From a virus, in the IMG/VR virus record IMGVR_UViG_3300031963_000887, positions 1 to 24,716 of that record: 24,716 nucleotides of DNA. One strand, written 5' to 3'. Of this stretch, positions 6,562 to 10,389 are shown in pieces. The first letter of the stretch is position 1; every line of letters starts with the position of its first letter. Below the pieces are notes generated by a model. That model did not search any database. It was not told the DNA's origin and saw only the letters and a list, made by a program, of their open reading frames with translations. The position numbers and the translations under genes are program-made.

Positions 6562-7476
6562 TTACTTGGTGTAGTGGATACGAATTGGATACTTGTCTTG
6601 CAACTTCAACGCTTCCTCATTTAGGCGCTGTTGATACAAGGCAAAAACATAACGAGAAGCAGATGCACCAGAGTTGTATGGGTTCTTGGTGTCATTAAGG
6701 TCAGCCTCAGCACTAGATAGATTTATACGACCAGTGTCAAGGAAAGAGAGAAGTTTGTAGCAAGCACCGAGTACAGTGACATCATAAGAACTACCAGGTA
6801 GACCAGTAACGTCCTCATAGTCATCGCTACTAGCATCAAGGGTATTGGGTTCTGTTGTATACCAGACCTGAACGGTACGACCAGGTTGTATGTTTTCATA
6901 GATATTCACCGTAACATTTGTATTAAAGGTTGCAGAGTTTGCCATTGGGTCAATGCGCCAACGGTTGATAGGTAGCCATTCCTGAGAAGAGCCTGTGGTC
7001 TGCCAAGACATATAAAGAATTTGCTCGCAATCATCTGGCAGAGCATAAGTTGTTTGAGAAGCATTGAAGGTAAAGGTAGTTGAACTTACTGCCCATAGTT
7101 TAGGGTAGTAAGAGTTGATAGTATCGTTGATAGCCTTCTTGATAGATACTCGTGGGAATGTTGGGGCCAGAGTTACTTGGGCATATCTAGCGTGAGGTGA
7201 TGCTGTTGTTCCTTGGAAGCCGCGACCAATCGGGTTAGTCGGAGCACCCATTACGTTAAGAGTGTTTGTTGTTTTATTGAAGGAGTCAATCCAAACCAAC
7301 TCATCATCAATTTCAATTAGACCCTTAGCAAGGTTGTCTGCAGAACCAACTTGAATTTCTAAACTGGTAGTTGTCAGACCAGCAGTGTTATTGACATAAG
7401 TGATGCGATCTTGACGGAGTGAATAACCTTGTAGGTTAGTTCTCACCTCGTTGATCATCTCGGACAGTGTTGGCAT
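6562..7476 (-). CDS. Probable tail adaptor/tail tubular-like virion protein (304 aa)
   Basis: I chose the ATG at 7476 because GGAAGGAAATA stands directly before it. A reading from 7500 would add eight residues and lacks such a site. The N-terminus (MINEVRTNLQGY, then DRITYVNN) is helical, followed by a beta segment with IEIDDELVWIDSF, a helix IKKAINDTINSYYPKLW near residue 115, the segment YALPDDCEQIL, and a helix-rich end (ACYKLLSFLD, RYVFALYQQRLNEEALKL). A helix-beta-helix protein of about 300 residues located between head genes and fibres fits the adaptor (gp11-like) ring that joins portal to tail in short-tailed phages. Similarity to a named family is not certain. The gene starts 41 bases inside the GT4 gene. 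Confidence 0.6.
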   Translation of the reverse strand: MPTLSEMINEVRTNLQGYSLRQDRITYVNNTAGLTTTSLEIQVGSADNLAKGLIEIDDELVWIDSFNKTTNTLNVMGAPTNPIGRGFQGTTASPHARYAQVTLAPTFPRVSIKKAINDTINSYYPKLWAVSSTTFTFNASQTTYALPDDCEQILYMSWQTTGSSQEWLPINRWRIDPMANSATFNTNVTVNIYENIQPGRTVQVWYTTEPNTLDASSDDYEDVTGLPGSSYDVTVLGACYKLLSFLDTGRINLSSAEADLNDTKNPYNSGASASRYVFALYQQRLNEEALKLQDKYPIRIHYTK

Positions 7477-8536
7477 TATTTCCTTCCGTATACCAGCCAT
7501 CTCCCCACAGAGTCTCTAGTCTGTGGAAATACTTTTCATATTGCTTTGCTATGACATCTACTGAGTAGAGCGATATAGCCCTATCTCTGATAGCCTGCCT
7601 ATCTAAGTTCTTGACGTTCTGTGTTGCCAAGATAAACTCTTCTACATTTCTACATCTAAAACCTGTAACGCCTTCTACAACAGTTTCAGTAAATGCACCC
7701 CAGTCTGTAGTAATAACAGGAGTTCCGCAGGCTTGTGATTCAATGTTCACATTGCCAAAAGGTTCTAGGTATAGCGTTGGAACAAATGTTGCTATTGCTC
7801 CACCCATTAACTCTGCACGCTTCTCAGGTCCTACTGGGCCTAGATACTCACCATAGCTTGGTATATGGTCGCCAGGACCTGCAAAGATAAGTCTTGCTCC
7901 GATAGTCCTGCAGATATGCGCTGCAATGTCTATACCTTTTCTCGGAATCATTCTTCCGATATACAGGTAATAATCTCCATCGCCTTTACCCATTGGGAAC
8001 ATCTCAGGATCTAAGTAACCTGGAATTACTGCATCAAAAAAATTACCATCTACTGTTGCTGCATCTCTATGCTGAGCATAGACTGCGTGCATCCAAGCAT
8101 AAGATTCAAATACTCGGTAGTTAGAAAATACTCCAGAGTATCCAACGCCAAACTCAACTACCATCATTCCTGGTAGAGCCAGTGCTATTGGTTGATGTGA
8201 ACCGCCACCGATTACACATACAAAGTCTTTTTGTTCTGCACGCTTGCGTATCTCAGCAGCAGCCTTCTTATTAAACTTCTCCCAATGTGGCAACTTATAG
8301 TTGAACGGAGCCTCTACATAAGGCTTATTGCCTACAACGATACGTCGCTGTGTCTCTGTGATACAAGGGATAAGTTCGTCTACATCAGCTTCATTCTCTT
8401 CGCCTGCGTAGAGATAGACTGTGTGGCCTAAGCCCTTCATCATATTGCAGAATCTGCGTACCTTTTCAGTGTACGCACAACCTGCGAAATCTTTAGTTAC
8501 CTGTGTGTGGGGTAGTGCTACTACGTGGAATCTCAT
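7436..8536 (-). CDS. GT4-type glycosyltransferase (366 aa)
   Basis: GT-B fold enzyme of the GT4 kind. The N-terminal half has a nucleotide-free acceptor-type fold (MRFHVVALPHTQ opening, helices near 20-40). The C-terminal half has the nucleotide-sugar site: YIGRMIPRKGID (192-203), FAGPGD (218-223), and the retaining EX7E motif from Glu258 to Glu266 (EPFGNVNIE) followed by ACGTPVITTDWGAFTE. The family transfers a sugar from a nucleotide donor with retention of configuration. It starts nine bases after the GT25 gene and its 3' end overlaps the adaptor gene by 41 bases, so it sits inside the virion operon. Likely use is to extend or modify the glycan on the fibre or another virion protein. Host wall modification is an alternative. 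No signal peptide, so cytoplasmic. Confidence 0.87.
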   Translation of the reverse strand: MRFHVVALPHTQVTKDFAGCAYTEKVRRFCNMMKGLGHTVYLYAGEENEADVDELIPCITETQRRIVVGNKPYVEAPFNYKLPHWEKFNKKAAAEIRKRAEQKDFVCVIGGGSHQPIALALPGMMVVEFGVGYSGVFSNYRVFESYAWMHAVYAQHRDAATVDGNFFDAVIPGYLDPEMFPMGKGDGDYYLYIGRMIPRKGIDIAAHICRTIGARLIFAGPGDHIPSYGEYLGPVGPEKRAELMGGAIATFVPTLYLEPFGNVNIESQACGTPVITTDWGAFTETVVEGVTGFRCRNVEEFILATQNVKNLDRQAIRDRAISLYSVDVIAKQYEKYFHRLETLWGDGWYTEGNNANTVRDDQRGEN

Positions 8537-8545
8537 ACCACAATT

Positions 8546-9121
8546 CTACTGAAAGCCTTGGAAATCAGAGACTAACTCGCCGCGTAAATCTGAGAATCCA
8601 TCGTGCTGAATTACCAGGTTTGGGTGGGCAATATAGGCGTTAGTCCTGTTAGCCCAAACCCTATAGGCAATGTCTATATGGCGGTCAAACTCTCTGGCTA
8701 TCTGGATAAACAAGTCTACCTTAGCAGGATTGACACAATAGGCTTGAGTTCCTGTTGAGACTACCTGCCTAACCCAGTGTTTATTGACTGGCTTAGTCTC
8801 ATTCTTTACGGCTCCCAAATAAAAGATATCCCAGTCCTGCGGTAGGTCTGCCATATATTCATCTAAAGATTGTACGAAATCTTGTCTAAATTTAGCATCA
8901 TCTTCACAGATAAGGACCATCTCATCTGGCTTTATCTTCCGTAGAACCTCTATGTGGCTTAGCCTGCCAGCCACAATCGGGTCCATACCTAGAAACTTTC
9001 CATCTAAAGCAGGATGTATTTCAAAGTCAAAGCCAACTGTTTCGGCTTCTTTACGGAACTGCTCTAAACGATCTGAACGTCTATTGACATTGATAACAAT
9101 AACTCTGTCAAAGAACTTCAC
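8546..9121 (-). CDS. GT25-type glycosyltransferase (191 aa)
   Basis: A compact GT-A enzyme. Hallmarks of the GT25 (LPS/procollagen galactosyltransferase) family are [16 protein letters not shown] at the N-terminus, PALDGK (about 37-42), [12 protein letters not shown] (52-63), the metal and donor binding EDD (73-75) in [10 protein letters not shown], and [11 protein letters not shown] further on. The N-terminal Asn/Arg/Asp motif and the EDD are complete. At 191 residues it is somewhat shorter than typical bacterial members, mainly at the C-terminus. The GTG start at 9121 overlaps the stop of the collagen-like gene (GTGA), so the enzyme is made together with its probable substrate. Known family members add galactose to collagen or to lipooligosaccharide. 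Here transfer to the fibre is inferred. Confidence 0.85.
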
Positions 9122-10389
9122 ATACCGCCTAGCATCAGGATATCTGGCAACGCTGTTGCACTAGCACCAGTTGGACCAGTTGCACCCGTCGGTCCTGTCG
9201 GGCCTGTGATACCAGCAGGTCCTGTAGGACCCGTTGCACCAGTAGCACCAATATCACCTTGTGGGCCAGTAGCACCCGTAGGACCTGTAACACCGATAGG
9301 ACCTGTTGCTCCAATAGGGCCAGTTGGACCTGTCGCTCCTACATCACCAGCAGTACCTTGTGGACCTGTAGGTCCTGTAGCTCCGATAGGACCAGTTGGG
9401 CCTGTAACGCCTTGTGGTCCAGTAGGACCAGTAGCACCGATTGGACCTGTAGGTCCGATAACACCAGCAGATACGATTGCTAGAATTACGCTTGCGTTAT
9501 TGGCAAAGCCTGTACTACCAGTACCAGCAGATGTAATAAGGGTTACTGGAACTTCAACGTAATCATTTGGGATGATTGTGATTGAGCCAGAAACTTCCCA
9601 CTTCTGATAGTTATCAGAGTTACTGCTATCTTGAATAATAAGAACGTCGTTTGTGCTAAGCAACGCAAGGAAAATATCTACGTCGATATTGTCAGCATTG
9701 ATATGATCAATGTTGATTTGAGTTGCTGAAGTCTGTGTAGCGTTATTCCATAGCAGGAATGTACTTCCTGGCGAACCGCTTGTTGCGGTTGTCTTTGCTA
9801 CATAATCATAATAGTTAGCAGATTGTCCGTCAGCACCTGTTGGCCCAGTAGCACCTGTTGCCCCTACTGGTCCTGTTGCACCTGTTGGTCCCATTGGACC
9901 AGTAACACCAATCGGTCCAGTTGGACCTGTATCGCCTGTAACACCCTGCGGTCCAGTGGCTCCTATAGGCCCTGTAGCGCCCGTAGGGCCTGTATCTCCT
10001 GTGACTCCTACTGAACCTGTGGCTCCTGTTACGCCAATAGGTCCTGTGGCTCCTATAGGTCCAGTTGGACCTGTTGGGCCAGTTACTCCTTCTGGTCCTG
10101 TAGCACCAACTGGGCCTGTTGCTCCAGTAACTCCGATAGGGCCTGTAACGCCTGTCGGTCCTGTGGGTCCTGTCGGACCTGTTACCCCTGTATCGCCTGT
10201 GGGTCCTGTTGGACCTGTAAGACCTGTAATACCAGTGGCACCTGTAGAGCCTGTAGAACCTGCAGGACCAGTCGGTCCTGTCGGACCTGTAGGACCTGTG
10301 ACTCCTACGCCACCTTGTGCTCCTTGGTCTGCTGAAAACTCTACTGCAACTTGTGGAGTGATTGACTCAATTACGATAATAGTACTCAC
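9118..10389 (-). CDS. Collagen-like fibre protein with internal globular domain (423 aa)
   Basis: Four parts are visible: a 22-residue N-terminal attachment segment; an unbroken Gly-X-Y tract (residues 23-190, 56 triplets); a globular, beta-rich insert (about 191-311, with [36 protein letters not shown] and a hydrophobic VILAIVSAG end); a second tract (312-410, 33 triplets); and a short hydrophobic tail ([11 protein letters not shown]). About 40 of the 56 triplets in the first tract have Thr in Y. No Lys occurs in either tract and charge is minimal. Such tracts form collagen triple helices, giving a trimeric rod. Thr-rich bacterial collagens are O-glycosylated, for example on Bacillus spores. 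GTG start at 10389 overlaps the preceding stop, with AGGAG upstream. The product is probably a head or tail fibre. Confidence 0.88.
9160..9456 (-). repeat. Second Gly-X-Y coding repeat block (33 triplets)
   Basis: Nine-base periodicity encoding Gly-Pro-Thr, Gly-Ala-Thr, Gly-Pro-Ile and similar triplets without a break. Codons for Gly and Thr vary (GGT, GGA, GGC, GGG; ACA, ACT, ACG, ACC), so the block is maintained at protein level and is not a recent simple tandem expansion. Confidence 0.85.
9820..10323 (-). repeat. First Gly-X-Y coding repeat block (56 triplets)
   Basis: Uninterrupted Gly at every third residue with Thr dominating position Y. As in the second block, synonymous codon variation is high. 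The plus strand gives Pro/Val-rich open frames across it, which are shadows of the repeat. Confidence 0.85.

What the first reader, a model, noticed from the sequence alone, without database searches (positions are those of the whole stretch)
7436..10389. Collagen-like fibre coupled to GT25 and GT4 glycosyltransferases: a possible self-contained fibre glycosylation system
Seen: 423-aa protein with 56 + 33 uninterrupted Gly-X-Y triplets, Thr dominating Y and no Lys in the tracts. The GT25-type gene starts inside its stop codon, and a GT4-type gene follows nine bases later. Known: GT25 includes procollagen galactosyltransferases that act on hydroxylysine, and Thr-rich bacterial collagens (Bacillus BclA) are O-glycosylated on Thr. 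Inference: because the substrate has no Lys, the phage GT25 would have to sugar Thr directly, a specificity shift within this family, and GT4 may extend the glycan. A glycosylated fibre could shield the virion or bind host lectins or surface layers.
Basis: partly seen in the sequence, partly recalled or inferred. Interest (0 to 1): 0.78.

Follow-up and report, generated by a model that had tools for sequence, protein, structure and literature searches.

The report
Phage collagen fibre with glycosylation genes
A freshwater phage carries a collagen-like fibre gene next to two sugar-transferring enzymes, one built like the human enzyme that sugars collagen, and comparison with relatives suggests the fibre is sugared on threonine rather than lysine.

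Summary
In detail: a 423-aa collagen-like fibre (56+34 Gly-X-Y triplets, Thr at 61 of 90 Y positions, no Lys in the tracts), a stop-start overlap into a GT25 gene, then a GT4 gene 9 bases on. The GT25 model matches human procollagen galactosyltransferase COLGALT1 (Z 20.5) above bacterial GT25s (15.7). Of 183 loci fetched only through the neighbouring adaptor gene, 104 have collagen plus exactly one slot enzyme (GT4, or a GmaR/SunS-like GT2), 79 have neither, none is discordant; GT25 is an optional insert (30 of 104) with no visible effect on Thr content. So GT4/GT2 is the core enzyme and GT25 probably an elaborator. GT4 and GT2 relatives also lie near collagens in unrelated phages, those near GT2 being Thr-rich and Lys-free. 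By contrast, cultured cyanophages and a roseophage encode GT25 fused to a PLOD-type glucosyltransferase, beside collagens with many Lys at Y. Most likely phages have two collagen-glycosylation systems, lysine-type and threonine-type, and this window holds the second. No glycan has been measured.

The parts
9118..10389 (-). collagen-like fibre gene, 423 aa
   Evidence: ORF and triplet count; Pfam Collagen 7.6e-40; PHROG tail fibre families
9820..10323 (-). Gly-X-Y tract 1, 56 triplets, residues 23-190, Y = Thr in 40
9160..9465 (-). Gly-X-Y tract 2, 34 triplets, residues 309-410, Y = Thr in 21
10324..10389 (-). conserved N-terminal 22 residues, probable virion anchor (inferred)
   Evidence: similar N-terminus in most of the related collagens listed
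9121..9159 (-). C-terminal tail ...[13 protein letters not shown], shared with relatives with and without GT25
8546..9121 (-). GT25 glycosyltransferase, 191 aa, COLGALT1-like fold; optional insert in relatives
8897..8905 (-). GT25 EDD motif, residues 73-75, invariant in an alignment of 13 sequences (role as metal/donor motif recalled)
   Evidence: aligns with EDD of R655 and COLGALT1
7436..8536 (-). GT4 glycosyltransferase (phrog_3408), 366 aa; slot enzyme next to the adaptor
7742..7768 (-). GT4 EPF...E motif (E257 nearly invariant, E265 invariant in an alignment of 31)
6562..7500 (-). SU10-type adaptor, used as the anchor gene of the comparison
   Evidence: PF24175 6.9e-8, phrog_7578 7.6e-116
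10386..10739 (-). 117-aa protein upstream of the fibre (phrog_1084; weaker match to L-shaped tail fibre assembly phrog_3304); found in 96 of 104 collagen-bearing and 0 of 79 collagen-less loci
10739..11026 (-). 95-aa marker gene used to call an interval complete
   Evidence: phrog_27452
12570..13505 (-). major capsid protein
   Evidence: PF13252, phrog_1357

Best explanation
The three genes are a phage fibre-glycosylation cassette of a threonine type. Shown: in this phage lineage a Thr-rich, nearly always Lys-free collagen fibre is accompanied by exactly one slot glycosyltransferase (GT4 here, a GmaR/SunS-like GT2 in others) just upstream of the adaptor gene, and sometimes by a COLGALT1-fold GT25. 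Inferred: in the host cytoplasm the slot enzyme transfers a sugar from a nucleotide-sugar to Thr at Y positions of the fibre, and GT25, where present, adds a second sugar (galactose, judging by its fold) or decorates further positions. The glycans would stabilise and hydrate the triple helix and vary the surface that hosts and competitors see; gain and loss of GT25 and swapping of GT4 and GT2 would vary the glycan.
For: Adaptor-anchored loci, blind to fibre and enzymes: collagen+slot GT 104, neither 79, discordant 0 of 183; deduplicated 79 and 59 (earlier counts 59/59 and 51/51). Within this lineage GT4 and GT2 exclude each other and have swapped at least 5 times on the best tree (2 forced by well-supported branches); GT25 presence changed at least 16 times. 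Thr at Y follows the slot enzyme (GT2 medians 0.84-0.90, GT4 0.67-0.68, p 7e-8, not corrected for kinship), not GT25 (p 0.90 and 0.15; 10 independent pairs without trend). GT25 is a clean one-gene insert: L032, L033 and L050 have the same fibre tail 10 nt before GT4. The GT2 profile matches GmaR (1.2e-10) and SunS (7.8e-10) (two designed TPR proteins score higher through its TPR part); these modify protein or peptide side chains (GmaR's function is recalled). Outside the lineage: GT4 homologues lie within about 1 kb of collagen-like genes in 3 of 3 named cyanophage lineages inspected; GT2-anchored contigs, none with this adaptor or a GT25, have a collagen in 42 of 80, 41 of those 42 Lys-free, Thr at Y median 0.59, against 27 of 58 Lys-free and 0.33 in general phage collagens (p 1e-8 and 1e-6). 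GT25 closest structure COLGALT1, Z 20.5, rmsd 1.9.
Against: No glycan has been measured. In 24 of 104 loci the fibre lies more than 400 nt from the GTs, which stay beside the adaptor (slot GT within 150 nt in 103 of 104), so another late protein could be the substrate. The nearest solved relatives of GT4 are enzymes of small or sugar acceptors (alpha-1,2-glucosyltransferase tll1591, tetrahydrobiopterin glucosyltransferases), which fits an extender better than a primer. The co-absence of collagen and GT may rest on one gain or loss at the base of the clade. Only 2 well-supported independent pairs tie slot enzyme to Thr content (too few for a test). The collagens beside GT4 in the three cyanophages are only moderately Thr-rich (0.37-0.57) and three of the four hold 2-5 Lys in the tracts; GT4-anchored contigs have a collagen in only 35 of 80, and the Lys-free share does not differ from control (20 of 32, p 0.19). 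The Lys-free rule has exceptions: one GT2-only fibre and two fibres with GT25 and GT2 (L152, L169 = L027) have a single Lys.
Confidence: 0.5

Rival explanations
1. One reading: GT25 galactosylates Thr directly and GT4 adds glucose, a Thr version of the animal Glc-alpha1,2-Gal unit.
For: GT25 is closest to COLGALT1; GT4's nearest solved relative is an alpha-1,2-glucosyltransferase, a linkage also named for the second collagen sugar of animals (PMC11012932 passages).
Against: 74 of 104 collagen-bearing loci have the slot GT and no GT25; fibre make-up does not depend on GT25. A GT4 extender without its primer would be idle in most relatives.
Confidence: 0.13
2. Thr at Y only stabilises the triple helix; the GTs modify another late protein (adaptor, tail or receptor-binding proteins).
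For: GTs stay next to the adaptor when the fibre is displaced (24 of 104 separated); Thr is the commonest Y residue of bacterial collagens in general (31.6% in all bacteria, 48.3% in Gram-positives, PMC8968730 passages).
Against: The adaptor and capsid persist without any of these GTs in 79 collagen-less loci (capsid seen in most of them) and in 4 Streptomyces phages; unrelated phages share the collagen and the GT but not this adaptor.
Confidence: 0.13
3. The GTs act on host cell-surface glycans (superinfection exclusion, receptor change) or on phage DNA, as suggested for the GTs of related Planktophila phages.
For: This is the role proposed for GTs of phages E7 and F5 in PMC10202952 (whole text read), and host-surface change is proposed for pelagimyophage GTs in PMC7029224 (passages).
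Against: The genes sit in the structural gene block, GT25 overlaps the fibre gene, and the slot GT is present or absent together with the collagen; E7 has no homologue of these three GTs (HMM E<=1 on its ORFs of 90 aa or more).
Confidence: 0.11
4. GT25 and the slot GT both act on the fibre but independently, on different residues (for example Ser/Thr of the non-collagen middle domain or the two Lys outside the tracts).
For: GT25 gain and loss leaves the slot GT and fibre make-up unchanged; the middle domain holds the two Lys.
Against: Fibres with GT25 vary widely in length and tip, and no hydroxylase was found among 29 window proteins scanned, though the window is a fragment.
Confidence: 0.1

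Closest known systems
Human COLGALT1/GLT25D1 (procollagen galactosyltransferase, GT25)
   Same: fold of one of its GT domains (chain residues 338-561), Z 20.5, rmsd 1.9 over 174 residues, 25% identity; EDD motif
   Different: single 191-aa protein; no Lys in the neighbouring fibre tracts; no lysyl hydroxylase seen in the window
Mimivirus R655 / L230 / R699 collagen-modifying enzymes
   Same: virus-encoded collagen plus GT25-type enzyme; R655 is the best PDB profile hit, 1.8e-21
   Different: the mimivirus activities reported are on hydroxylysine (PMC9546862 passages; R655 itself untested there); here a Lys-free fibre in a tailed phage
BclA-type glycosylated bacterial collagens
   Same: collagen-like protein known to be glycosylated in Bacillus (PMC8968730 passages; Thr linkage recalled)
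   Different: exosporium protein of spores; here a phage structural gene beside a GT25
GmaR (Listeria) and SunS, protein/peptide glycosyltransferases
   Same: sequence profile of the alternative slot enzyme GT2
   Different: neighbours are collagen fibres, not flagellin or sublancin; the window itself has GT4 in that slot
GT25-PLOD fusion proteins of cyanophages S-PRM1, S-CAM9, S-8S53 and roseophage CRP-6 (related to phrog_61)
   Same: phage GT25 domain beside a collagen-like fibre
   Different: fused to a PLOD-type GT, in the three cyanophages with 2OG oxygenase genes upstream; collagens have Lys (and Thr) at Y

Membership tests
Glycosyltransferase family 25 | matches the family profile above its cut-off | tested here: met
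   PF01755 39.1 bits v 24
Glycosyltransferase family 25 | GT25 fold with conserved acidic motif | tested here: met
   model pLDDT 94; EDD invariant in an alignment of 13
Collagen hydroxylysine galactosyltransferase (COLGALT) | fold closer to COLGALT than to bacterial GT25 | tested here: met
   Z 20.5 v 15.7
Collagen hydroxylysine galactosyltransferase (COLGALT) | Lys/hydroxylysine acceptor in the collagen tracts | tested here: not met
   no Lys in the window's 90 triplets; none in 24 deduplicated relatives with GT25; of the wider GT25-anchored set two fibres have one Lys (L152, L169)
Collagen hydroxylysine galactosyltransferase (COLGALT) | lysyl hydroxylase in the same organism | tested here: inconclusive
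   none among 29 window proteins, but the window is probably a fragment
Collagen hydroxylysine galactosyltransferase (COLGALT) | galactosyl transfer to collagen | not testable with these tools
   needs an enzyme assay
GT4 (phrog_3408) | profile match over full length and conserved E-x7-E motif | tested here: met
   6e-77 over residues 1-350; motif in alignment A7
Phage virion glycosylation system | sugar on a virion protein | not testable with these tools
   no mass spectrometry available
GmaR/SunS protein glycosyltransferases (for the alternative slot GT2) | sequence relationship | tested here: met
   GmaR 1.2e-10, SunS 7.8e-10 with profile A8; designed TPR proteins rank above through the TPR part
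GmaR/SunS protein glycosyltransferases (for the alternative slot GT2) | transfer to a protein side chain | not testable with these tools
   needs an enzyme assay

The most novel reading that the evidence does not exclude
Tailed phages carry two chemically distinct, self-contained collagen-glycosylation systems. The lysine type has Lys at Y and a polypeptide fusing a COLGALT-like GT25 to a PLOD/LH3-like glucosyltransferase (with a lysyl-hydroxylase-like C-terminus in L508, and separate 2OG oxygenase genes in the cyanophages), in cultured cyanophages and a roseophage. The threonine type (this window) has almost no Lys, Thr at Y, an interchangeable GT4 or GmaR/SunS-like GT2, and an optional stand-alone GT25 that works without hydroxylysine.
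Probability: 0.42. Interest if true: 0.82.

Novelty: new variant of a known kind. Interest (0 to 1): 0.67.

Why it matters
It would give phages a compact and cultivable counterpart of animal collagen glycosylation, including a threonine version that needs no hydroxylase; it would give a function to glycosyltransferases now filed by PHROGs as 'moron, auxiliary metabolic gene and host takeover' (phrog_3408, phrog_61); and it would supply small enzymes for making glycosylated recombinant collagen. The two types make a clear prediction: the residue at Y matches the enzyme set.

Tried and rejected
Host identity: I found no gene in the window that names a host. The collagen-less sister group holds the cultivated Planktophila phage E7 (OX376640; PMC10202952), so a 'Ca. 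Nanopelagicales' host is likely but inferred.

GT25 from bacteria or from the phage PLOD fusions: in a quick tree of 83 GT25 domains the family grouped with neither the 44 cellular rows nor the 6 fusion rows (many long branches, weak; one family row, L126, was mislabelled 'phage126kb' in the group table, and the model was LG+G4 without mixture).

GT25 effect on Thr content: none found. Lys in the fibre tracts as GT25 acceptor: rejected for the window. The 45 cellular GT25 loci were not examined for neighbouring collagens. NCBIfam gave no match for GT25 and only matches far below cut-off for GT4 and two of three GT2s.

The E7 paper reports two collagen-like proteins and a glycosyltransferase; the only ORFs with six or more G-x-x in a row in E7 are two Gly-rich ones, and no homologue of the three GTs was found in that genome. 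I did not identify the GT the paper means. In a note I called DSL-LC01 isolated; the paper says metagenome-assembled (PMC10611076 passages).

Literature: of the searches (0 papers; 2; 2; 2) I saw the listings, read PMC10202952 whole and passages of PMC8968730 and PMC7029224; none proposes a collagen fibre as substrate of phage glycosyltransferases in what I saw. The listings (15 of 62 shown) held nothing on phage collagen.

Selection of rows: A1 and A3 sets share some contigs (for example L081/L233, L086/L243); deduplicated counts are given. Loci without the upstream marker were left out: one search used 59 of 80, 51 of 80, 183 of 240. The collagen control used the 80 listed of 120 returned loci; 22 of the 80 had no ORF passing the filter (at least 15 triplets, little Gly at X and Y). 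The first row of the GT2 query A11 came from control locus L532, whose contig is also in the GT2-anchored set (L592).
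Full report
WHAT IS THERE. Reading on the minus strand, the window runs from large late proteins and the capsid gene to a 95-aa and a 117-aa protein, then the 423-aa collagen-like fibre (10389-9118), GT25 (9121-8546), GT4 (8536-7436), the SU10-type adaptor (7500-6562) and tail genes. Thr fills 61 of 90 Y positions; the tracts have no Lys. The GT25 start overlaps the fibre stop by 4 nt.

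HOW UNUSUAL IS THE FIBRE. A pattern scan that fixes Gly and Pro but leaves Y free returned 120 viral loci (capped); I examined the 80 listed and found a collagen-like ORF passing the filter in 58: median Thr at Y 0.33, 27 of 58 Lys-free. Published averages for bacteria are similar (31.6% Thr at Y in all bacteria, 48.3% in Gram-positives; PMC8968730 passages). The window (0.68, no Lys) is at the Thr-rich end.

WHAT THE GT25 IS. PF01755 at 9.8e-10. Among solved structures the sequence search finds mimivirus R655 and human COLGALT1; the profile gives 1.8e-21 and 1.3e-17, the bacterial GT25 beta-1,4-galactosyltransferase only 2.4e-4. The AlphaFold model (pLDDT 94) matches COLGALT1 residues 338-561 at Z 20.5, rmsd 1.9 over 174 residues, R655 at 18.6, and the bacterial enzyme at 15.7. 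So the enzyme is built like a collagen galactosyltransferase; its acceptor is not shown. In the phage collection only 4 records match GT25, all uncultured phages, best 31% identity.

IS GT25 TIED TO THE FIBRE? Searching with GT25, 27 of 29 loci have a collagen upstream (in L026 2.6 kb away); the two others (28% identity) do not. These 27 are one phage lineage. I therefore anchored on the adaptor, which ignores both fibre and enzymes. First set: 59 of 80 loci cover the interval; collagen 59/59, GT4 59/59, GT25 24/59. Second set (a GT2-clade adaptor as query): 51 of 80 cover it; collagen 51/51, GT4 in 30, a GT2 in 21, never both or neither, GT25 in 9. Third set (adaptor of the cultivated Planktophila phage E7 as query): 79 of 80 carry the marker; no collagen of 10 or more triplets and no GT4, GT2 or GT25 anywhere in the fetched stretch. 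With one marker for all three sets: 183 of 240 loci, 104 with collagen and one slot GT (86 GT4, 18 GT2), 79 with neither, none discordant; GT25 in 30 of 104; deduplicated 79 and 59. Four cultured Streptomyces phages with the same capsid-adaptor synteny have a non-collagen fibre and none of the three GTs in the 12-16 kb fetched.

WHAT THAT MEANS. GT25 is an optional, clean one-gene insert: near relatives L032, L033 and L050 have the same fibre tail 10 nt before GT4. On an adaptor tree of 109 rows its presence changed at least 16 times; GT4 and GT2 swapped at least 5 times (2 forced by well-supported branches). Thr at Y does not depend on GT25 (0.67 without, 0.68 with, among GT4 loci, p 0.90; GT2 loci 0.84 and 0.90, p 0.15) but differs between GT2 and GT4 loci (p 7e-8, not corrected for kinship; only 2 supported independent pairs, in the same direction). 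The simplest reading is that the slot enzyme, not GT25, is the core enzyme. Against a tight fibre-enzyme link: in 24 of 104 loci other genes separate the fibre from the GTs, which stay by the adaptor.

THE SLOT ENZYMES. The GT2 profile matches GmaR (1.2e-10) and SunS (7.8e-10) (designed TPR proteins score higher through its TPR part), enzymes of protein or peptide side chains (GmaR's function is recalled). GT4's nearest solved relatives are alpha-1,2-glucosyltransferase tll1591 and tetrahydrobiopterin glucosyltransferases, not protein glycosyltransferases: this speaks against GT4 as a primer and is the main weakness of my reading. Both families are found near collagens in unrelated phages. GT4: 3 of 3 named cyanophage lineages inspected (ACG-2014f, S-CAM7, S-CBWM1) have collagen-like genes upstream, directly adjacent in two of them; these collagens are only moderately Thr-rich (0.37-0.57) and three of the four hold 2-5 Lys in the tracts. 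Of 80 GT4-anchored contigs 35 carry a collagen (27 of the 53 with at least 4 kb upstream); Thr at Y is raised (0.56, p 4e-4) but the Lys-free share is not different from control (20 of 32, p 0.19). GT2: metagenome-assembled actinophage DSL-LC01 has two Lys-free collagens with Thr 0.65 and 0.61 nearby, and 42 of 80 GT2-anchored contigs carry a collagen (41 of 80 under the slightly different filter; 32 of the 44 with at least 3 kb upstream), none with this adaptor or a GT25; 41 of those 42 collagens are Lys-free, Thr median 0.59.

A NATURAL CONTRAST. One control contig, L508, carries a collagen with 30 of 164 Y positions as Lys, a phrog_61-related (2OG oxygenase) gene and a 607-aa protein of three parts: GT25 (7e-23), PLOD glucosyltransferase (3.9e-49) and a 2OG oxygenase end (2.5e-5, just under Pfam's cut-off) that also matches a solved procollagen lysyl hydroxylase domain (6ax6, 9.4e-9; that this is mimivirus L230 is recalled). 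Relatives over the whole length (44-46% identity) exist in cyanophages S-PRM1, S-CAM9 and S-8S53, and one of 37% over 92% of it in roseophage CRP-6. GT25 and PLOD-GT domains are confirmed in these four; their oxygenase end did not pass the Pfam threshold used, but S-PRM1, S-CAM9 and S-8S53 have two annotated 2OG oxygenase genes just upstream, while none is annotated next to it in CRP-6. Their neighbouring collagens have Lys at 23 of 59, 22 of 59, 24 of 55 and 26 of 99 Y positions (and Thr at 22, 24, 11 and 48); with L508 this makes 5 of 6 loci inspected; the sixth, L676, is an 8-kb fragment without a collagen. So where GT25 comes with the PLOD-type domain the collagen offers Lys; in the window's lineage, without it, Lys is nearly absent (0 of 24 deduplicated GT25-bearing fibres; in the wider set two fibres, L152 and L169, have one Lys each).

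MECHANISM, with steps marked. Shown: gene order, conservation, co-occurrence, predicted fold, residue make-up. Inferred: cytoplasmic transfer from nucleotide sugars to Thr at Y by GT4 or GT2; elaboration by GT25; effect on helix stability, hydration and recognition. Not shown: any sugar, donor, acceptor, or the place of the fibre on the virion (head side or tail side; the neighbouring 117-aa protein has a match to an L-shaped tail fibre assembly family).

WHAT IS KNOWN. The mimivirus activities reported act on hydroxylysine (PMC9546862 passages). BclA of Bacillus is glycosylated (PMC8968730 passages). In the related Planktophila phages a GT has been read as a DNA or cell-wall modifier (PMC10202952, whole text). 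The searches showed no paper proposing a collagen fibre as the substrate, as far as I read them; subscription papers are not held.

VERDICT. New variant of a known kind; interest 0.67.

Noticed in passing
L508:2798-7196; L672:9001-10845; L673:9001-10842; L674:9001-10866; L675:8908-10677: Phage proteins that fuse a COLGALT-like GT25 with a PLOD-type glucosyltransferase (in L508 also a lysyl-hydroxylase-like end), next to collagen fibres with many Lys at Y, in cyanophages and a roseophage: an apparent animal-type collagen modification system in phages.
   Followed up: partly
L179:9073-9666; L181:9978-10574: A 2OG-Fe(II) oxygenase gene (PiuC; PF13640 tested in L179 only) lies directly after GT4 in cyanophage ACG-2014f and within about 1 kb of it in S-CAM7, both near collagen genes; possibly a prolyl hydroxylase for the fibre.
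   Followed up: no
L385:6430-8001: A gene annotated as tryptophan halogenase lies between two collagen genes (plus a hypothetical gene) and the GmaR-like GT2 in actinophage DSL-LC01.
   Followed up: no
L099:4456-5040: A methyltransferase gene (PF13578, PF01596) lies between the fibre and GT4, possibly capping a glycan.
   Followed up: no
5046-5399 and 5719-6552: Two tail genes end in the same kind of domain (..KLRxQxSAAxxVK..GDxSA) that in relatives (L079, L084, L090, L098, L256) forms the C-terminal tip of the collagen fibre: exchangeable tips.
   Followed up: partly
3486-5115: Three tandem genes share a motif (FxSIxGxYTxL, seen by eye) and look like paralogues; no Pfam match.
   Followed up: no
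18918-23678: A 1586-aa late protein without any Pfam or PHROG match at the thresholds used.
   Followed up: no
L002:2924-3169: An 81-aa gene of unknown family sits between fibre and GT25 in a few relatives (L002, L005-L007); no Pfam match.
   Followed up: no
L388 / OX376640: The record named 'Caudovirales sp. ct2KA10' carries the chromosome name LanE43-AprE7, that is Planktophila phage E7; the 'collagen-like' proteins reported for it probably are its two Gly-rich proteins without a Gly-X-Y signature.
   Followed up: partly
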